A stretch of 64,000 nt of DNA from Amycolatopsis sp. FDAARGOS 1241 (lineage in GTDB: Bacteria > Actinomycetota > Actinomycetes > Mycobacteriales > Pseudonocardiaceae), in contig NZ_CP069526.1 in NCBI RefSeq assembly GCF_016889705.1, forward strand, positions 2,294,001-2,358,000. Reading direction: 5' to 3'. Below, piece after piece: positions 53,264-60,316 of this stretch. Below the pieces are notes generated by a model. The model saw only the letters and a list, made by a program, of their open reading frames with translations, had not been told where the DNA came from and did not search any database. A program made the position numbers and the translations under genes. The stretch's first letter is position 1; the number at the start of each line of letters is the position of its first letter.

Positions 53264-53890
53264 TCACGAAGCACCGTCGACGCGCACGACGCCCGGTGTC
53301 GCCGAACCGCCGAGCCAGCCGCGGCCCTCGTCGTACAGCACTTCGACCGAGTGCCCGCGCAGCCCGGGCAGGTCGCGCATGACCCGGTACCCGTTGTCCT
53401 CCTGGAGGTAGCCGAGGTGGCGGTAACCGGGTGGGAAGCTCGCCAGCGCCGCGGCGTCGAGCTTGAGCGACGCCGCGGGATCGACGACGTCCATCCGGTC
53501 CGACTCGTAGATCGGCTGCCGGCGCACGATGCCCCAGCGCCCGTCGCGGCGTTCGAGGAAGTCGTAGAACCGCCCGGTGCACGTCACGTCGACTAGCGTG
53601 CCGTGGACCGGCGCGCGCTGCTCGATCTTCATCTTCGTCTGGGCGATCGCCCGGGCGCCCGAGACCTCGCACGTGAAGCCGCCGAGGAAGTGCAGGATCT
53701 GGCCGCCCGCGTCGAAGGCCGCGCGGCTCACCTCGATGAAATCGGTGAAGGGACCTTGGAACCACGTCGCGGTCATCCAGCCGTCGCTGTGCCAGACCGT
53801 CGCGAACTCCTCCCACCGCGCGGAGTCGCGGTAGAGGGCCCAGTCCTCGACGACCTTGCGGATCTGCTCGTACTCGGGGTGAAGAGGCAA
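53264..53890 (-). CDS. SnoaL/NTF2-like protein
   Basis: The 208-residue product has an N-terminal SnoaL-like alpha+beta barrel (about 5-140: IRKVVEDWALYRDSARWEEF, FATVWHSDGWM, LHFLGGFTCEV) and a C-terminal extension of about 65 residues. Such proteins can be small hydroxylases, cyclases or binding proteins. I chose the TTG at 53890 because AGG lies at a normal distance; a TTG at 53899 is too close to that site. It shares strand with the MFS transporter upstream, suggesting a catabolic role. Confidence 0.8.
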   Translation of the reverse strand: MPLHPEYEQIRKVVEDWALYRDSARWEEFATVWHSDGWMTATWFQGPFTDFIEVSRAAFDAGGQILHFLGGFTCEVSGARAIAQTKMKIEQRAPVHGTLVDVTCTGRFYDFLERRDGRWGIVRRQPIYESDRMDVVDPAASLKLDAAALASFPPGYRHLGYLQEDNGYRVMRDLPGLRGHSVEVLYDEGRGWLGGSATPGVVRVDGAS

Positions 53891-54046
53891 TGTGCCCAAC
53901 CTTTCTCGCTGTAACGGGTGAAGCAGCCGCGTCGACGAGTGAGCGCCGTGCTCCGATCGTGGCGCCGGCCGCTACCGGCGCGCAACGCCGGTGGCGGCTT
54001 GGAACCGAGGACGGGCCAGGAAGGCCGCGCCCGCGGTCCTCTGTGG

Positions 54047-55450
54047 TCAGTCGGCCGAGGCGGATTCCTGCCGTGGCTGCGCTGCGCTCGCGGCGCACGA
54101 GTCCCCGGCTCGAACCGAACGGGAAACCTTGGCCAGCGCCAGCACTGCGCCGCTGGCCACCAGGAACATCGCGCCCATCACCACGAACACGGTGCGGGGC
54201 GCCGCCCCGCCGCCCAGGGCGAAGCCGACCAGCAGCGGACCCAGGATGCCGCCGATGCGGCCGATGCCCAGCGCCCAGCCGACCCCGGTCGGGCGGATCC
54301 GCGGCGGGTAGAGCACCGTCGCCAGCGCGACCACGCTCATCTGGCCGCCGGTGACGCAGGTACCGGCGAGGAACGCCGCGCCCAGCACCAGCCAGCTCTG
54401 CCCGGTGACCGCGAACGCGAGCACCGACACGAACACCGCGCCGAGGAGGTAGACCACGCCGAGCGTGCCGAACGGCCCGCGCCGGTCCATCAGGGGCCCG
54501 ATCACCAGCGCCGCGGCGATCCCGCCGATCGTCGTCAGCGCCGTGGCCAGGACGGCCGTCGAGGGGGCGTGTCCGAGCCGGCCCAGGATCGTGGGCAGCC
54601 AGCTCTGCACGGCGTAGAACACGCCCAGGTTGAGCATGAACGCGAGCCACAGCAGCGCGGTGCTGGCGAGCCAGTGCCGCCGGAGCAGCTCGACCAGCGG
54701 GGACCGGACCTTCACCGGCGAACCGGCGCGCTCGGCCGGCAGCACCTGCGTCTGCGGGTCGAGCTGAGGGTCGACGCGGCACAGCGTGGCGTGGGCGCGG
54801 GCGGCGTCACGCGGCAGCAGATAACTCGGGGAGTCGGGCAGGAAGCCCAGCAGCACGACCGCGAGGAGCAGCGGCAGGACACCGCCGAGCACGAACATCG
54901 GCCGCCAGCCCCAGCTCGGGATGACCGCTCCGGAGATCAGGCTCGCGGCGACGAAGCCCAAGGCCAGCCAGCAGTAGATGAACATGACGAATGTGGAGCG
55001 GCGCCGGGCCGGCGCGAACTCACTGGCCAGCGCCACGGCGCTCGGGATGGCCGCACCGAGCCCGGCGCCGGTGAGCAGCCGCAGCACGATCAGCTGCGTC
55101 TCGTTCCCGGCCAGCGCGCACAGCACGGTGAACACCCCGAACAACGCCGTGGAGACGATGACGAGCTTGCGGTGCCCGACCCGGTTCGCCAGGGGCGAGA
55201 GCACCAGGTAGCCGATCATCAGGCCCACGATCGACGCGGAGAAGATCGGGCCGAGAGCGGCAACGGGCAGCGACCACTCCTTGGCGACGGCCGGGGCGAC
55301 GAAGCTGATCGCCTGGGTGTCGAGGCCGTCGAGGAACATGACCAAACCGGTCAGGGCCAGGACCAGGAAGTGGAAGCCGCCGACCGGCCGCCCGTCGATC
55401 AGCTCGTCCAGGCGCACGGTGCGGCGCGGTTGCGAAAGTTGAGAAGGCAC
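54047..55450 (-). CDS. MFS aromatic acid transporter (AAHS family, PcaK/BenK-like)
   Basis: The 467-residue protein has 12 membrane helices and the AAHS mark DGLDTQ at residues 41-46 in the first helix, where Asp residues couple protons to aromatic acid import. The loop 2-3 motif SPLANRVGHRKLV is present. The GTG at 55450 gives a normal N-terminus; longer frames add unrelated sequence. Together with the nitroreductase and PnbB-like genes upstream, 4-nitrobenzoate or a similar acid is the likely substrate. Confidence 0.9.
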   Translation of the reverse strand: MPSQLSQPRRTVRLDELIDGRPVGGFHFLVLALTGLVMFLDGLDTQAISFVAPAVAKEWSLPVAALGPIFSASIVGLMIGYLVLSPLANRVGHRKLVIVSTALFGVFTVLCALAGNETQLIVLRLLTGAGLGAAIPSAVALASEFAPARRRSTFVMFIYCWLALGFVAASLISGAVIPSWGWRPMFVLGGVLPLLLAVVLLGFLPDSPSYLLPRDAARAHATLCRVDPQLDPQTQVLPAERAGSPVKVRSPLVELLRRHWLASTALLWLAFMLNLGVFYAVQSWLPTILGRLGHAPSTAVLATALTTIGGIAAALVIGPLMDRRGPFGTLGVVYLLGAVFVSVLAFAVTGQSWLVLGAAFLAGTCVTGGQMSVVALATVLYPPRIRPTGVGWALGIGRIGGILGPLLVGFALGGGAAPRTVFVVMGAMFLVASGAVLALAKVSRSVRAGDSCAASAAQPRQESASAD

Positions 55451-55630
55451 GGCGGTATCGCCTTTCGTATGTGATGCACGGCCCCCCGAAGATGTGGGCG
55501 TGACCCGGGAAAGTCCCGGTGGGAACGGGGGAATTCCTGAACGCCTCCCCTGGTACTCAGGCCGTTCCCCGTACGGCCGAAGAGAAAAGGCCGGCACGGA
55601 AGGGGTTTTACGCGAGTCTGACCTGAGGGG

Positions 55631-56398
55631 TCAGCAGGATTCGTCGCTGTAGAAGGTGGTGAAGGTGCTGACCGGTTCGCGCGCAGTCCGATGACGACTG
55701 AGGCGGTGCTCCGGGTCGGCGTAGCCGAGGGCGAGTCCGCAGACGATGAGCTGATCGTCCGGGATCTTCAGGTGCCGGCGCAGAACCGGGTAGAAATCGA
55801 TGAACGACGCCTGCGGGCAGGTGTCGAGCCCGGCGTGGCGGGCCACGAGCATGAGCGCCTGCAGGAACAGCCCGGCGTCGACGAGCGCGCTCGCGAGCGG
55901 AGCCCGGCTGACCGTGAGGACCAAACCCACCGGGGCGCCGAAGAAATCGTAGTTCCGCCGGTGGTGTGCCTGGCGGCCTTCGGTGTCGTGCGGGGCGATC
56001 CCGAGCGTGTCGCGGTAGAGGCCTTCACCGAAGGCCCGGCGGCGGGTCCGAAACGGCTCTTCCCAGTCTTCCGGCGCCGGCTGGTACGGGTACTCCCGCT
56101 CGGCGACCCGGCCGTCTCCGTCCAGTGCCTGCCAGAGCGCGTCGGTCAACCGGCGTTTCGGTTCGCCGGTCAGGACGTGGACGTGCCACGGCTGGCCGTT
56201 GGAGTTGCTTGCCGACCGCGCGGCGAGCGCCAGCAGGCTCTCCACCTCCGCGCGCGAAACGGGCGTGGGCAAGAACGCCCGCACGCTGCGGCGCGTCAGC
56301 AAGGCCTCGACGACGGTCACGGCCGGCGGTGCCGCACCGGCCGGGGGCGCGACTTTCGTGGTGGTGTTGTCGTTCATCAGCTCGGCGGTTTCGGTCAC
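55631..56398 (-). CDS. Nitroreductase-family protein (PnbA-like)
   Basis: The 255-residue FMN-dependent enzyme has VEALLTRRSVRAFLPTPVSR and SASNSNGQPWHVHVLTG, typical of nitroreductases that reduce nitro groups to hydroxylamines. It also has a C-terminal PDDQLIVCGLALGYADPEH. A hydrophilic N-terminal tail of about 27 residues precedes the domain. The GTG start overlaps the stop of the PnbB-like gene by four bases, so both enzymes are made together. This pairing suggests reduction of 4-nitrobenzoate to 4-hydroxylaminobenzoate; substrate identity is inferred from context. Confidence 0.9.
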   Translation of the reverse strand: MTETAELMNDNTTTKVAPPAGAAPPAVTVVEALLTRRSVRAFLPTPVSRAEVESLLALAARSASNSNGQPWHVHVLTGEPKRRLTDALWQALDGDGRVAEREYPYQPAPEDWEEPFRTRRRAFGEGLYRDTLGIAPHDTEGRQAHHRRNYDFFGAPVGLVLTVSRAPLASALVDAGLFLQALMLVARHAGLDTCPQASFIDFYPVLRRHLKIPDDQLIVCGLALGYADPEHRLSRHRTAREPVSTFTTFYSDESC

Positions 56399-56958
56399 TG
56401 CCCGTCGGCCGCGGACATCCGGTAGCCGTCGGGGACCATGAATTCGTAGTCCTCGGGAACCGTGATGTCGTAGGAAATGCGGCCTGCGGGCAGGTAGAAC
56501 AGGGCGATCAGCGACCCGCCCACGACCTCGGGGTAGTGGTGGCTGCCCGGCTCGGGCGACGTCCAACCCGGACCCTGCCAACCGCGCGGCCCGCGCAGCA
56601 GCGCACCCTCGTCCAGCGGGATGACCATGTTGATCTCGCCGTAGGGGTGCTGGTGGTATTCACCGCAAAAGAGCGTCTCGCTGTTCAAGTAGACGGCCGT
56701 GATGCTGAACCAGTTCAGCCGCTCGCTCGGCTCGACGATCCGGCTCCGGCGGTAGTTCGGACCGTCGACCTCGACGTTCGCGGCCCAGCCGTCGGCGACC
56801 CCGTCCTTGATGATGCGGGCGAGGTCGTCCCACAGCTCGGAACCGGGACCGCGGTGCTCGTTGAGCCAGGTTTCCAGCTCGACTCCGGCCGTGCGGTTCT
56901 TGATCTCGTTGATGAACGGGATGCTGCGCTCGATCAGATCTTCGGGTGTCGCGCTCAT
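56395..56958 (-). CDS. pnbB: 4-hydroxylaminobenzoate lyase (PnbB, DUF4863 family)
   Basis: PnbB converts 4-hydroxylaminobenzoate to protocatechuate with release of ammonia. The 187-residue protein keeps the cupin-type metal motif H102-x-H104-x3-E108 (YHQHPYGEINMVIPL) and PEPGSHHYPEV with H140/H141. It also has the family stretch NYRRSRIVEPSERLNWFSIT and the C-terminal FYLPAGRISYDITVPEDYEF. ATG 56958 is chosen on homology and has AGGAGACAG upstream. It is the first gene of an operon with the nitroreductase and faces a TetR gene. Confidence 0.85.
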   Translation of the reverse strand: MSATPEDLIERSIPFINEIKNRTAGVELETWLNEHRGPGSELWDDLARIIKDGVADGWAANVEVDGPNYRRSRIVEPSERLNWFSITAVYLNSETLFCGEYHQHPYGEINMVIPLDEGALLRGPRGWQGPGWTSPEPGSHHYPEVVGGSLIALFYLPAGRISYDITVPEDYEFMVPDGYRMSAADGQ

Positions 56959-57024
56959 GTTCTGTCTCCTGCTGGCGTCGTTGCCGGAGCGGGAAGCCCC
57001 GCGCTCGAAACGGTAAGATAGGCG

Positions 57025-57051
57025 AACGTTACAGTCAATAGCTGTAACGTT
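57025..57051. promoter_or_regulatory. TetR operator between pnbB and its regulator
   Basis: AACGTTACAG (57025-57034) and CTGTAACGTT (57042-57051) are perfect ten-base arms with a seven-base spacer. The core GTTACA-N9-TGTAACGT recurs at 58453-58475. Confidence 0.85.
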
Positions 57052-57095
57052 TGAGGTAAGCGGCGGACTTGGCCCCAGGCCCCGATAATCGAGCC

Positions 57096-57737
57096 ATGAC
57101 GGACTCACGCAAGGCGGACCCCGAAGCCGGACAAGCGACGGCCCCGTCGCGCGGTGGCCGGCCGTTGGATCCCGGGCGCGACGAAGCGATCATCACGGCC
57201 GCGCGCCGGCGGCTGGTCCTCGACGGTTATTCGAGGATGACGATCGCGGACATCGCCACCGACGCCGGCGTGTCACGGCCGACGGTCTACCGGCGCTGGT
57301 CGGGCAAGCTCGAACTCACCATCGAGGCGATCGACTACGGGTTCCGCGCGCAGCGCGACGCCTACCCCGCTCTGGAGCTCGCGGACCTCCCGGCTCCCGA
57401 AGCGCTGGCGGAGGCCGTCCGGCGGCTGGATCCCTGTTACTACAACCCCGACGCGATGGTCCTGATGGGCAACTTCATGAGCGAGACAACGCGAACGCCG
57501 GAACTGCTCGCGATCGTGCTGGAGCACGCCGTCGAGCCCCGGCTCGCGCACCTCGAAGGCGTCCTCGCCGATCTGCAGGAGCGCGGCGAGGTGCGGTCCG
57601 ACCTCGATCGGCACACCATCGCCACGATGTGCTTCGGCAGCTACTTCGCGGCGTTCCTGCGCGCTGAGCACGACCGCAGTGGTCTCGCCGAGCAGGTCGT
57701 CGCCGTGCTGTGGCCGGGGATCGCGGCGCGGCGGTGA
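57096..57737 (+). CDS. TetR-family regulator of the nitrobenzoate genes
   Basis: The 213-residue protein has the TetR HTH (ARRRLVLDGYSRMTIADIA, then TDAGVSRPTVYRRWSGK) and an effector domain with CYYNPDAMVLMGNFMSET. It is divergent from the pnbB-nitroreductase operon and shares a palindromic operator with it, so an aromatic acid or hydroxylamine effector is likely. It is a close paralogue of the TetR gene at 57757-58407, which converges on it. Confidence 0.93.
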   Translation: MTDSRKADPEAGQATAPSRGGRPLDPGRDEAIITAARRRLVLDGYSRMTIADIATDAGVSRPTVYRRWSGKLELTIEAIDYGFRAQRDAYPALELADLPAPEALAEAVRRLDPCYYNPDAMVLMGNFMSETTRTPELLAIVLEHAVEPRLAHLEGVLADLQERGEVRSDLDRHTIATMCFGSYFAAFLRAEHDRSGLAEQVVAVLWPGIAARR

Positions 57738-57756: not shown

Positions 57757-58407
57757 TCAGCGCTGTCCCGGGGCGGGTCTTCTTTCGAGGGTGGGCCAGA
57801 GCACGGAGGCGACCGATTCGGCGACGTCCACTTCGGACCCGCCGCGGTAGAAGGCCGCGAGGTAGCTGCCGAAGCACAGCGTCGCGACGGTGCACTTGTC
57901 GATGTCGTCGCGCACGGCGCGGCGGTGCTGGAGCCGGGTCAGCACGCTCTGCACGAGCTCGACCCGGGGTTCGACCGCGTGCTTGCGCAGGACCTCGAGC
58001 AGTTCGGGCGTGTGGCTCGATTCGCCGGCGAAGCTGCCCATCAGCACCATCGCGTCCGGGTTGTAGTACGTCGGGTCCAGCCGCCGGAGGACCTCCACGA
58101 ACGCGGCCCGCGGCTCGAGTCCGCTCAGGTCCAGTTCGTACATGTCGTGCTGCTTGCGGAACCCGTAGTCGAGCGCGTCGACGACGAGCTCGAACTTGGT
58201 GCTCCAGCGCCGGTACAAGGTGGGCCGCCCGACCTTCGCGTCGGCGGCGATGTCGCCGAGCGTCAAGCGGGAATAGCCCCGCTCCACCAGGCGGCGTCGG
58301 GTCGCGAGGATGATCGCCTCGTCGAGCGCGGCGTCGCGGGGCCGGCCGCTCGGGCGTGGACCGTCGTCGGCGGGCCTGGTCGCGGGCAGCGCGCGTGCTC
58401 GAGCCAT
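57757..58407 (-). CDS. Second, paralogous TetR-family regulator
   Basis: The 216-residue protein matches its neighbour in the HTH (SRLTLGDIAADAKVGRPTLY) and in the effector region (TYYNPDAMVLMGSFAGES), so the two arose by duplication. ATG 58407 has GAGGTG at a good distance; a GTG at 58416 is the alternative. It is divergent from the arylamine N-acetyltransferase gene, with a matching operator between them. Confidence 0.92.
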   Translation of the reverse strand: MARARALPATRPADDGPRPSGRPRDAALDEAIILATRRRLVERGYSRLTLGDIAADAKVGRPTLYRRWSTKFELVVDALDYGFRKQHDMYELDLSGLEPRAAFVEVLRRLDPTYYNPDAMVLMGSFAGESSHTPELLEVLRKHAVEPRVELVQSVLTRLQHRRAVRDDIDKCTVATLCFGSYLAAFYRGGSEVDVAESVASVLWPTLERRPAPGQR

Positions 58408-58452
58408 GGGTGACACCTCGCCGAGAATTCGGGCAGCTCTGTAAGCTTGATA

Positions 58453-58475
58453 GTTACATATACTATCTGTAACGT
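58453..58475. promoter_or_regulatory. TetR operator between tetR2 and nat
   Basis: GTTACA (58453-58458), nine bases, TGTAAC (58468-58473) and GT have the same architecture and flanking bases as the pnbB operator. The patch is A/T-rich and also contains GATAGT-N7-ACTATC overlapping it. Confidence 0.8.
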
Positions 58476-58504: not shown

Positions 58505-59260
58505 GTGGACGTCGAGGGCTACCTCCGCAGGATCGGCGCGGTCCGCCCCGCCGTGCCCGATCTCGCCGCGCTGCGCGAGCTGCAGCGCCGCCACCTCGAA
58601 ACGGTGCCGTTCGAAAACCTCGATCGCTACCTGGGACGGCAGATCGACCTCGCGGAACCCGCGTTGCTCGACAAGATCGTCGGGCAGCGCCGCGGCGGGT
58701 TCTGCTACGAACTCAACGGCGCATTCGGGCTGCTGCTGCACCACCTCGGGTTCGAAGTGCAGCTGCTCGCCGGCCGGGTGTTGCGCCGGGAAGGAGGGTT
58801 CGGCCCGCCGCTCGACCACCTGGCGCTGCGCGTCGACCTGGCCGAGCCGTGGCTGATCGACGTGGGGTTCGGCCGGTTCAGCGTCCGGCCCCTGCGGCTC
58901 GCGACGACCGCGGCCCAGCCGGATCCGGCGGGCCGGTTCACCACCCGGCCCGCGCCACACGGCGACGTCGACGTACTGCACGACGGGGACGTGGTCTACC
59001 GGCTGGAACCGCGCCCGCGCGCCCTGGACGACTTCCACGCCATGGCGTGGTTCCACACGAACTCCCCGCAGTCGCCCTTCGCCCACGGGCCGACGTGCTC
59101 GCTCGTGACCCCCGGCGGGCGCGTGACGATCGCCGGGGGCCGCCTGATCGAAACGACCGGTGCCGAGCGCACTGAGCGCGTGCTCGATGGCGACGACGCG
59201 ATCCTGCGGGCCTACGAGGAACACTTCGGCATCGTCCTCGACCGGGTACCTGCCGGCTGA
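58505..59260 (+). CDS. nat: Arylamine N-acetyltransferase
   Basis: NAT transfers acetyl groups from acetyl-CoA to arylamines and arylhydroxylamines. The 251-residue protein has the full catalytic triad: Cys67 in RGGFCYELN, His105 in PPLDHLALRV and Asp119 in LIDVGFG. The start is GTG with GGAGGGA upstream. Placed behind a TetR operator shared with the nitroreductase operon, it could detoxify aminobenzoate or hydroxylamine side products. Confidence 0.95.
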   Translation: MDVEGYLRRIGAVRPAVPDLAALRELQRRHLETVPFENLDRYLGRQIDLAEPALLDKIVGQRRGGFCYELNGAFGLLLHHLGFEVQLLAGRVLRREGGFGPPLDHLALRVDLAEPWLIDVGFGRFSVRPLRLATTAAQPDPAGRFTTRPAPHGDVDVLHDGDVVYRLEPRPRALDDFHAMAWFHTNSPQSPFAHGPTCSLVTPGGRVTIAGGRLIETTGAERTERVLDGDDAILRAYEEHFGIVLDRVPAG

Positions 59261-59293: not shown

Positions 59294-60235
59294 TCACCGC
59301 ACGAATTCGGCCGCGAAGGTCCGCAGGGTGTCGGCGTCGAGCGCGTTCTGGAAGCCGATGATCAGCTCGTCCACCCCGGCCTCGCGGTAGGTGTCGAGCC
59401 GATTGCGGATCGTGTCGATCGTGCCGACGAGGCCGTAGCCCGCGAGGTCGCCCGGGAAGACCAGCTGCGCCCACGGCGGGACCGCCGCGCGGGCCTCGTC
59501 GTCAGTGTCGGCGGTGATGCAGTAGGTCGTGGACGTCTTGGTGATCGCCGAGTAGTCGCGGCCCACCGTCTCGCAGTGGCGAGCGAGAATCCCGTACTTG
59601 CGGTGGACCTCGTCCGGCGACTCCTGCACGTTGCAGAGATCGCCGTACAGTGCGACCAGCCGCAGCGTCACCTTCTCCCCACCGCCGGCGACCATCACCG
59701 GCGGGTGCGGCGCCTGGACGCCGGTGGGCAGGTTCACCGCGCCGTCGGTGCTGAAGTAGCGGCCGGCGAAGGTGGCCGGGTTCCCGGTCCACAGTTCGGC
59801 GATGATCTGCAACGACTCTTCGAGCCGGCGCAGGCGCTCGCCGGCGCCGGGGAAGTCGTAGCCGAACGCGCGGTACTCGTCCTCGTACCAGCCGGCGCCG
59901 ATGCCGAAGGTCAACCGCCCGCCGGAGACGACGTCGAGGGTCGAGGCCATCTTGGCCAGCAGGGCGGGGTTGCGGTAGCCGTTGCCGGTGACCAGCTGGC
60001 CGAGCCGGGCGGTCCTGGTTTCGCGAGCCAGCGCCGCCAGGGTCGTCCAGGCTTCGAACACGAACGACCCCGACGGGCCGAACGGGATGAAGTGGTCCGG
60101 GGCCCAGATCGTGGTGAAGCCGGACTCGTCGGCCACCCGGGCCAGTTCGAGAAGCTTGTCGAACGCGACGACCGGGCTGGTGTAGCCCGCGAACTCGTGG
60201 GTCGTCCCGGTGGGCAGGTAATAGCTCAGTTCCAT
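59294..60235 (-). CDS. LLM-class F420-dependent oxidoreductase
   Basis: The 313-residue TIM-barrel protein has the luciferase-like blocks TIWAPDHFIPFGPSG, LGQLVTGNGYRNPALLAKM, VSGGRLTFGIGAGWYEDEY and PPVMVAGGGEKVTLRL. These fit the F420-dependent TIGR03560-type group. The substrate is unknown. It converges on nat and starts 82 bases from a divergent dihydrofolate-reductase-like gene. F420 enzymes in actinobacteria can reduce nitroaromatics, so a link to the cluster is possible. Confidence 0.92.
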   Translation of the reverse strand: MELSYYLPTGTTHEFAGYTSPVVAFDKLLELARVADESGFTTIWAPDHFIPFGPSGSFVFEAWTTLAALARETRTARLGQLVTGNGYRNPALLAKMASTLDVVSGGRLTFGIGAGWYEDEYRAFGYDFPGAGERLRRLEESLQIIAELWTGNPATFAGRYFSTDGAVNLPTGVQAPHPPVMVAGGGEKVTLRLVALYGDLCNVQESPDEVHRKYGILARHCETVGRDYSAITKTSTTYCITADTDDEARAAVPPWAQLVFPGDLAGYGLVGTIDTIRNRLDTYREAGVDELIIGFQNALDADTLRTFAAEFVR

Positions 60236-60316
60236 GGTTTGTGAGACCGCGGGGGATCCGCGAAGGAATCGAGAGCGGACCGATTCCTTTTCGCACCGCG
60301 GGTGGTCCAACTCCTC

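What the first reader, a model, noticed from the sequence alone, without database searches (positions are those of the whole stretch)
54047..57737. Candidate 4-nitrobenzoate-to-protocatechuate operon in an actinomycete
A PnbB-type lyase (H-x-H-x3-E metal motif) is coupled by a four-base overlap to a nitroreductase. They lie beside an AAHS-type aromatic acid importer and opposite a TetR gene. PnbA/PnbB are known from Pseudomonas and Ralstonia 4-nitrobenzoate pathways; the set here, with its own importer and regulator, would be a compact actinobacterial version. The ring-cleavage (pca) genes are not in the window.
Basis: partly seen in the sequence, partly recalled or inferred. Interest (0 to 1): 0.75.

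Follow-up and report, generated by a model that had tools for sequence, protein, structure and literature searches.

The report
Nitrobenzoate-breakdown genes under one regulator
A soil bacterium carries a probable two-enzyme route that turns nitrobenzoate-like compounds into an ordinary food molecule, and a shared DNA switch appears to tie it to a nearby gene that detoxifies aromatic amines.

Summary
The genes are as described: a PnbB-family (PF16155) protein, a nitroreductase, an aromatic-acid-type MFS transporter and a divergent TetR gene. The enzyme pair is ordinary: one search gave 1,138 PnbB relatives, and a pnbAB pair is reported in Nocardia testacea CS1. The genome (Amycolatopsis, inferred) has a second pnbB-nitroreductase locus and pcaHG/pcaD elsewhere. 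The PnbB model is a cupin; H102, H104, E108 and H141 are invariant in an alignment of 44. No characterised PnbA/PnbB sequence was at hand.

New is the control layer. A palindrome, GTTAC-N11-GTAAC, lies between tetR and pnbB, and again between a second tetR and an arylamine N-acetyltransferase gene. It lies within 300 bp upstream of pnbB in 32 of 39 actinobacterial loci (27 exact, 5 with one mismatch) and 0 of 40 proteobacterial loci; shuffles give 0.13 of 39. At pnbB it usually carries the -35 box. The genome's five exact copies each precede a gene whose relatives carry the site in other genomes. Best reading: a TetR-repressed nitro-/amino-arene carboxylate regulon, of which the reported operon is one member. 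Substrate, inducer and repressor binding are inferred.

The parts
56395..56958 (-). pnbB-family gene, 187 aa cupin (PF16155, 4-hydroxylaminobenzoate lyase family); likely metal ligands H102, H104, E108, H141
   Evidence: 211.1 bits vs cut-off 26.9; ligand residues invariant in an alignment of 44; AF2 pLDDT 91.4; cupin matches
55631..56377 (-). nitroreductase (PF00881), pnbA-like; ATG start, or GTG start at 56398 giving a 4-base overlap
   Evidence: 108 bits; 3gr3 174.9 bits; a homologue lies next to pnbB on the same strand in 25 of 39 actinobacterial and 38 of 41 proteobacterial loci
54047..55450 (-). MFS transporter, closest to aromatic acid/H+ symporters (below the curated cut-off)
   Evidence: TIGR00895 343.2 bits, cut-off 418.55; PcaK 293.9 bits, cut-off 770; homologues with their own operator in other genera
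53264..53899 (-). SnoaL_4-domain protein, role unknown; directly downstream of NAT in the similar locus L183
   Evidence: 62.2 bits; L183 5527-6171, 84%
57096..57737 (+). TetR regulator 1, divergent from pnbB
   Evidence: PF00440 43.9 bits; 63% to the TetR of pnb locus 2
57027..57049 (.). operator, perfect inverted repeat CGTTACAG-N7-CTGTAACG between tetR1 and pnbB
57010..57038 (-). predicted pnbB promoter: -35 TTGACT (57038-57033, inside the operator), 17-nt spacer, -10 TACCGT (57015-57010)
57757..58416 (-). TetR regulator 2, divergent from NAT, paralogue of TetR1 (54%)
58452..58474 (.). second operator AGTTACATATACTATCTGTAACG between tetR2 and NAT
   Evidence: an exact site is also between NAT and tetR2 in L183 at 7023
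58505..59260 (+). arylamine N-acetyltransferase (PF00797)
   Evidence: 192.2 bits; solved NATs e.g. 1w6f E 1.8e-31

Best explanation
This is a TetR-repressed cluster for para-nitrobenzoate-type acids. The MFS protein takes up the acid (inferred). The nitroreductase reduces the nitro group to the hydroxylamine (inferred from family). The PnbB cupin, using a metal held by H102, H104, E108 and H141 (inferred from motif, conservation and model), converts the hydroxylamine to protocatechuate and ammonia (family activity, not tested here). The chromosomal PcaHG branch then cleaves the ring. TetR1 and TetR2 bind GTTAC-N11-GTAAC (inferred). At pnbB the site overlaps the -35 box, so binding would block transcription until an aromatic ligand releases it (inferred). 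The same operator would control the neighbouring arylamine N-acetyltransferase, which could acetylate over-reduced arylamine such as 4-aminobenzoate (inferred). Elsewhere in the genome it precedes a second pnbB-nitroreductase locus, an alpha/beta-hydrolase/HD-domain operon and an isochorismatase-fold hydrolase/FUSC-exporter operon, and in one-mismatch form two further nitroreductases.
For: PF16155 and PF00881 full-length. Ligand residues invariant in an alignment of 44. Cupin model, pLDDT 91.4. pcaHG, pcaD and a PcaR-type regulator above curated cut-offs. Operator within 300 bp upstream of pnbB: exact in 27 and one mismatch in 5 of 39 actinobacterial loci, 0 of 40 proteobacterial, shuffles 0.13 of 39. 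Two exact sites in the window, chance mean 0.19 at up to one mismatch. All five exact sites in the genome precede genes whose relatives carry it in other genomes. In 15 other whole genomes 29 of 34 distinct sites fall inside the fetched pnb loci (my count), reversed-pattern control 0 in each. NAT-tetR2-tetR1-pnbB-nitroreductase-MFS is kept in a second genus genome with both operators (L183). NAT lies within 2 kb of pnbB in 4 of 11 genus loci. A Rieske plus GS-like gene pair lies near pnbB in several other genomes, and with a reductase and a GATase near locus 2 here, as in aniline oxidation.
Against: No enzyme, substrate or binding test exists here. No characterised PnbA/PnbB sequence was in hand. 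The operator count alone is weak: the genome has 5 exact sites against 2 for the reversed pattern, and 37 against 26 at up to one mismatch; the case rests on position and conservation. 7 of 39 actinobacterial loci lack the site at up to one mismatch. Three Kutzneria loci have the site but no TetR1/2-like hit in the fetched locus. The NAT operator does not contain a -35 box; 23 of 65 tabulated entries lack a 5-of-6 match to TTGACA, and no shuffled control was run for the -35/-10 boxes. The MFS is below the AAHS family cut-off. PnbB occurs in only 9 of 80 genus genomes. NAT is absent from 7 of 11 genus loci.
Confidence: 0.68

Rival explanations
1. The pair handles a different para-nitroaromatic, for example one arising from chloramphenicol or another natural nitro compound, and serves defence against a toxic arene more than growth on 4-nitrobenzoate. 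It shares the enzymology of the best explanation, so the two are not fully exclusive.
For: Sites precede a mixture of catabolic and detoxification-type genes: extra nitroreductases, NAT, FUSC exporter, hydrolases, and in a relative a WrbA-like reductase. The pnbAB pair of Nocardia testacea CS1 is proposed to act downstream in chloramphenicol breakdown.
Against: An aromatic-acid-type transporter and pca genes point to an acid that can be fully used. I did not look for chloramphenicol-oxidation genes.
Confidence: 0.4
2. The true substrate pool is arylamines (4-aminobenzoate-like). The nitroreductase works on nitroso or nitro by-products and PnbB removes the toxic hydroxylamine formed from the amine.
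For: NAT within 2 kb of pnbB in 4 of 11 genus loci. Rieske plus GS-like genes, part of the aniline-oxidation set (review PMC4539516, passages), lie near pnbB in L029, L034, L043/L177, L045, L060, L179, L181 and Methylobacterium L074.
Against: No arylamine N-oxygenase was sought. The Rieske/GS-like set is not in this window, and the GATase was found only at L029. NAT is absent from 7 of 11 genus loci.
Confidence: 0.2
3. The palindrome is a conserved promoter element or the site of an unlinked regulator, not the TetR operator.
For: TTGACT or a close form is part of 42 of 65 tabulated entries. Three Kutzneria loci lack a nearby TetR1/2-like gene.
Against: Both palindromic arms are kept, including the arm outside the -35. 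The 4 NAT entries and 4 of 5 isochorismatase entries lack a 5-of-6 -35 match. A TetR1/2-like gene lies in 27 of 39 actinobacterial loci, often divergent with the site in between.
Confidence: 0.1

Closest known systems
pnbA/pnbB 4-nitrobenzoate pathway of Pseudomonas putida TW3 and Ralstonia pickettii YH105 (recalled; the TW3 paper and two related ones were not held)
   Same: Nitroreductase plus PnbB-family lyase; a divergent regulator beside pnbB (recalled); protocatechuate as product (recalled).
   Different: The regulator there is LysR-type PnbR (recalled; a LysR-DUF4863-nitroreductase order with an aromatic-acid MFS is annotated in Cupriavidus pinatubonensis). Here it is TetR with a palindromic operator that recurs at NAT.
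pnbAB of Nocardia testacea CS1 (PMC13400229; passages and section 4.1 read)
   Same: Actinobacterial pnbAB, proposed to feed protocatechuate and pca genes.
   Different: The paper proposes the IclR regulator ChdR for a chloramphenicol cluster. No TetR, operator or NAT appears in the parts read. Its sequences were not compared.
Actinobacterial pnbB loci in Pseudonocardia, Rhodococcus, Arthrobacter, Streptomyces, Kutzneria, Actinomadura and others
   Same: 66-77% PnbB identity; same operator in 32 of 39; nitroreductase in 28 and TetR in 27 of 39.
   Different: NAT near pnbB is in 1 of these 39 loci, L043, an Amycolatopsis.
Aniline dioxygenase-type clusters (GS-like, GATase, Rieske oxygenase, reductase; review PMC4539516, passages)
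   Same: The same enzyme types stand in a row that ends about 5 kb from pnb locus 2 of this genome (L029).
   Different: Not in this window; beside an aromatic-acid-type transporter; substrate unknown.

Membership tests
PnbB (4-hydroxylaminobenzoate lyase, PF16155) | Full-length match over the curated cut-off | tested here: met
   211.1 bits vs 26.9, profile 2-153 of 153
PnbB (4-hydroxylaminobenzoate lyase, PF16155) | Conserved cupin metal motif H-x-H-x3-E plus distal His | tested here: met
   H102, H104, E108, H141 invariant in an alignment of 44; cupin-like model. That they bind metal is inferred.
PnbB (4-hydroxylaminobenzoate lyase, PF16155) | Close similarity to a biochemically characterised PnbB | not testable with these tools
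   None recognised (120 listed of 1138 and of 1132; two entries carry the name PnbB, origin of the name unknown) or (26 records); papers not held
PnbB (4-hydroxylaminobenzoate lyase, PF16155) | Converts 4-hydroxylaminobenzoate to protocatechuate and ammonium | not testable with these tools
   needs an enzyme assay
PnbA (4-nitrobenzoate reductase) | Nitroreductase-family flavoenzyme encoded beside pnbB | tested here: met
   PF00881 108 bits vs 23.5; gene adjacent. In TW3 the two genes are not adjacent (recalled).
PnbA (4-nitrobenzoate reductase) | Similarity to characterised PnbA, activity on 4-nitrobenzoate | not testable with these tools
   no reference sequence in hand; none of the 120 listed of 6403 is named PnbA (one is named chloronitrobenzene nitroreductase)
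Aromatic acid/H+ symport (AAHS) MFS, TIGR00895 | Score over the curated subfamily cut-off | tested here: not met
   343.2 bits vs 418.55, though the best hit; called AAHS-like only
TetR family regulator | TetR_N domain over cut-off, divergent gene, palindrome in the shared intergenic region | tested here: met
   DNA binding itself not tested
Arylamine N-acetyltransferase | PF00797 over cut-off, with the catalytic Cys, His and Asp (motif recalled) | tested here: met
   192.2 bits vs 22.8; RGGFCYE, DHLALRV and DVGFG seen in the translation. Below the cut-off of the NhoA-type equivalog NF011621 (110 vs 493).
LysR-PnbR-controlled pnb operon | LysR regulator divergent from pnbB (recalled) | tested here: not met
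   the divergent gene is TetR

The most novel reading that the evidence does not exclude
A previously undescribed TetR regulon, conserved across Actinobacteria and marked by GTTAC-N11-GTAAC, that senses nitro- or amino-benzoates and jointly switches on PnbB/nitroreductase catabolism, arylamine acetylation, extra nitro/quinone reductases, an HD-domain hydrolase operon and an isochorismatase-fold hydrolase/FUSC efflux operon: one programme for using an aromatic acid and surviving its toxic intermediates.
Probability: 0.55. Interest if true: 0.6.

Novelty: new variant of a known kind. Interest (0 to 1): 0.5.

Why it matters
If true, it gives the actinobacterial 4-nitrobenzoate-type pathway a testable control mechanism with an exact operator, links an arylamine N-acetyltransferase to nitroaromatic metabolism through that operator, and supplies a simple motif for finding unknown genes of nitro- and amino-arene metabolism in soil actinomycetes. 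The isochorismatase-fold hydrolase and the HD-domain protein are two such unknowns. The window's PnbB has no solved relative by sequence at E up to 1.

Tried and rejected
The first pattern search used the wrong spacer (N13: 0 sites, reversed control 1); corrected to N11. Characterised PnbA/PnbB sequences: none recognised in the listed rows; three papers on pnb genes, nitrobenzoate pathways and hydroxylamine lyase/mutase enzymes not held. The first PnbB model, from 16 sequences, was poor (pLDDT 69.9); replaced by one from 44. I considered using the mere number of operator sites in the genome as evidence and rejected it: counts against the reversed pattern are modest, and genus genomes without a PnbB match also carry exact sites such as GTTACTTAACTTGCCGGTAAC, which I did not examine. 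A resemblance of the regulon to Rut pyrimidine utilisation (TetR, isochorismatase, nitroreductase, LLM; recalled) was considered and dropped: the isochorismatase-fold protein is far below the RutB cut-off (46.3 vs 377.95). No NCBIfam model matched PnbB at E up to 0.001. Fold matches of the PnbB model are distant (best Foldseek TM 0.43-0.50 for DddQ). Paper searches aimed at a TetR-nitroreductase-NAT regulon or TetR control of nitrobenzoate genes (listings only) and at DUF4863 (0 papers) showed no such report; the library holds only open-licence papers, and I did not open the listed papers except as cited.
Full report
1. What is there. On the minus strand: a PF16155 protein (56958..56395, 187 aa, 211.1 bits against a cut-off of 26.9), a nitroreductase (55631-56377, PF00881, 108 bits) and an MFS transporter (54047-55450). 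On the plus strand: a TetR gene (57096-57737). The four-base overlap exists only if the nitroreductase starts at GTG 56398. Its closest database relative has the length that fits ATG 56377, so the overlap is not certain. The MFS scores highest with aromatic acid/H+ symporters but below their cut-off (343.2 vs 418.55), so I call it AAHS-like.

2. Neighbours that appear to belong. Downstream of the MFS is a SnoaL_4 protein (53264-53899 -). Beyond the first tetR are a second, paralogous tetR (57757-58416 -) and a divergent arylamine N-acetyltransferase gene (58505-59260 +). A second genome of the genus keeps NAT, tetR2, tetR1, pnbB, nitroreductase and MFS in the same order; there SnoaL directly follows NAT instead of the MFS (L183).

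4. The rest of the genome. A second locus (L001, L029) has tetR, pnbB (69% identical) and nitroreductase (70%) in the same divergent layout. Protocatechuate 3,4-dioxygenase subunits, PcaD and a PcaR-type regulator are over their curated cut-offs in L032 (C1:7160001-7178000); two CoA-transferase genes there are only weak pcaI/pcaJ matches, and pcaB and pcaC were not sought. In L029 a row of genes that ends about 5 kb from pnbB holds a Rieske oxygenase, a glutamine-synthetase-like gene, a reductase, a glutamine-amidotransferase gene, an amidohydrolase and an AAHS-like transporter, the last again below its cut-off. GS-like, GATase and Rieske enzymes together are the aniline-oxidation set (review PMC4539516, passages). 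I infer an arylamine-carboxylate dioxygenase, untested. Near pnbB in other genomes I found the Rieske and GS-like genes (L034, L043/L177, L045, L060, L179, L181, L074), often with the reductase, but not the GATase (loci are cut at about 6 kb either side, 9 kb for L175-L183).

5. The operator. Between tetR1 and pnbB lies a perfect repeat CGTTACAG-N7-CTGTAACG (57027-57049); a second copy lies between tetR2 and NAT (58452-58474). For GTTAC-N11-GTAAC with up to one mismatch, chance gives 0.19 per window; both sites are exact. Of 80 loci found with a 16-member PnbB alignment (the 80 best kept of 160), 39 are actinobacterial and 41 proteobacterial. Within 300 bp upstream of pnbB the site is exact in 27 of 39, has one mismatch in 5 and two or more in 7 (L033, L034, L056, L059, L060, L062, L070). 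It is absent at up to one mismatch in 40 of 40 proteobacterial loci with enough upstream DNA (1 of the 41 was dropped for lack of it). Shuffles of the same upstream DNA give 0.13 of 39. L060, L062 and L070 carry a symmetric two-mismatch form, ATTAC-N11-GTAAT.

6. Promoter. On the pnbB strand the site reads GTTACAGCTATTGACTGTAAC. TTGACT is followed after 17 bases by TACCGT (57015-57010). I tabulated 65 entries by hand (site and direction; a few sites are entered in both directions and one locus twice). Of these 42 match TTGACA in 5 of 6 positions inside the operator, and 32 have at least 4 of 6 together with a TAnnnT box 16-19 bases on. No shuffled control was run for these boxes. None of the 4 NAT entries and 1 of the 5 isochorismatase entries has the 5-of-6 -35 form.

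7. The regulon. The genome has five exact sites: before pnbB here, before NAT, before pnbB of locus 2, before an alpha/beta-hydrolase/HD-domain/MFS gene set, and before an isochorismatase-fold hydrolase/FUSC-exporter pair. Each of these gene types has the site in other genomes: pnbB; NAT in L183 exactly, and in L181 and L177 with one mismatch; HD or hydrolase-HD in two other genomes, L145 and L146; isochorismatase in Streptomyces L062, L064, L067 and L072. One-mismatch sites at locus 2 precede two further nitroreductases (NR_A, NR_B) and a DsbA-like gene; sites precede NR_B and DsbA homologues in L179 and L181 and NR_A homologues in L061, L064, L068 and L076. The count alone is weak: 5 against 2 for the reversed pattern, 37 against 26 with one mismatch allowed; most of the one-mismatch sites were not examined.

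8. Whole-genome specificity. I searched 15 genomes, chosen from the 39 actinobacterial loci among those that had shown a site, with GTTAC-N5-TTGACTGTAAC and up to one mismatch. After merging both-strand hits I count 34 sites: 29 inside the fetched pnb loci of about 12.5 kb, 2 just outside on the same contig, 3 elsewhere. Two of the three precede HD-type genes (L145, L146); the third was not fetched. The reversed pattern gives 0 in all 15. Because I chose the genomes, the presence of one site in each is not independent; the clustering is.

9. Neighbour counts (tblastn with the window's and genome's proteins). Pnb-type nitroreductase directly downstream on the same strand: 25 of 39 actinobacterial loci; directly upstream or downstream in 38 of 41 proteobacterial loci (33 and 5). 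TetR1/2-like gene in the locus: 27 of 39. NR_A/B-type nitroreductase: 12 of 39. MFS at 50% identity or more: 8 of 39. HD: 5 of 39 and 10 of 41. NAT: 1 of 39. In the window's genus 9 of 80 genomes have PnbB; NAT lies within 2 kb of pnbB in 4 of 11 pnb loci (window, L177, L181, L183). L177, L178, L180 and L182 are then the same loci as L043, L046, L036 and L044.

10. Known and new. PnbB relatives are common (1138 at E up to 0.001, 120 listed). Nocardia testacea CS1 has a reported pnbAB (PMC13400229; passages and section 4.1) with a proposed IclR regulator for its chloramphenicol cluster; nitroreductase and pnbB genes are also reported in a chloramphenicol-degrading consortium (PMC9590159, passages) and pnbA, pnbB and pnbR in Paraburkholderia terrae KU-15 by BLAST (PMC9302171, whole text). 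The LysR-DUF4863-nitroreductase order with an aromatic-acid MFS in Cupriavidus pinatubonensis resembles the LysR-regulated pnb genes that I recall from P. putida TW3. The enzyme pair is therefore a new member of a known kind; the TetR operator regulon with NAT is the new variant. I found no report of it, in an open-licence library only.

11. What is shown and what is inferred. Shown: gene content, families, conserved residues, model fold, operator conservation and placement, pca genes. Inferred: substrate, reaction order, metal binding, TetR binding, inducer, NAT role, transport direction.

Noticed in passing
L029 3377-10928 (G000:C1:1527377-1534928): Rieske oxygenase (LigXa_C), glutamine-synthetase-like, reductase, GATase, amidohydrolase and AAHS-like MFS in a row, aniline-dioxygenase-like. 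The Rieske/GS-like part also lies near pnbB in L034, L043, L045, L060, L179, L181 and Methylobacterium L074.
   Followed up: partly
L030 3547-6335 and L145, L146: Alpha/beta hydrolase, HD-domain protein (weak match to the cyanamide hydratase family, below cut-off) and MFS behind the operator. HD homologues also lie near pnbB in 10 of 41 proteobacterial loci. Function unknown.
   Followed up: partly
L031 4287-7071; L062, L064, L067, L072: Isochorismatase-fold hydrolase and FUSC (fusaric-acid-resistance-like) exporter genes behind the operator; unlinked to pnb here, within the pnb locus in four Streptomyces loci.
   Followed up: partly
L183 12370-13023: A WrbA-like flavodoxin-fold reductase gene (PF03358) with an exact operator about 20 bp upstream in a second genus genome.
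   Followed up: partly
L032 12687-14077: By eye from the translation, an IS30-like transposase beside the CoA-transferase genes near pcaHG; not tested.
   Followed up: no
window 59294-60310: F420-dependent LLM-class oxidoreductase (TIGR03560, 266.9 bits over its cut-off of 231.4) next to NAT; no operator site near it.
   Followed up: no
L170 (Cupriavidus pauculus plasmid), L171 (Polaromonas JS666 plasmid): Distant PF16155-type (DUF4863) proteins, 39-40% identical, beside meta-cleavage genes; possibly a different lyase subfamily.
   Followed up: no
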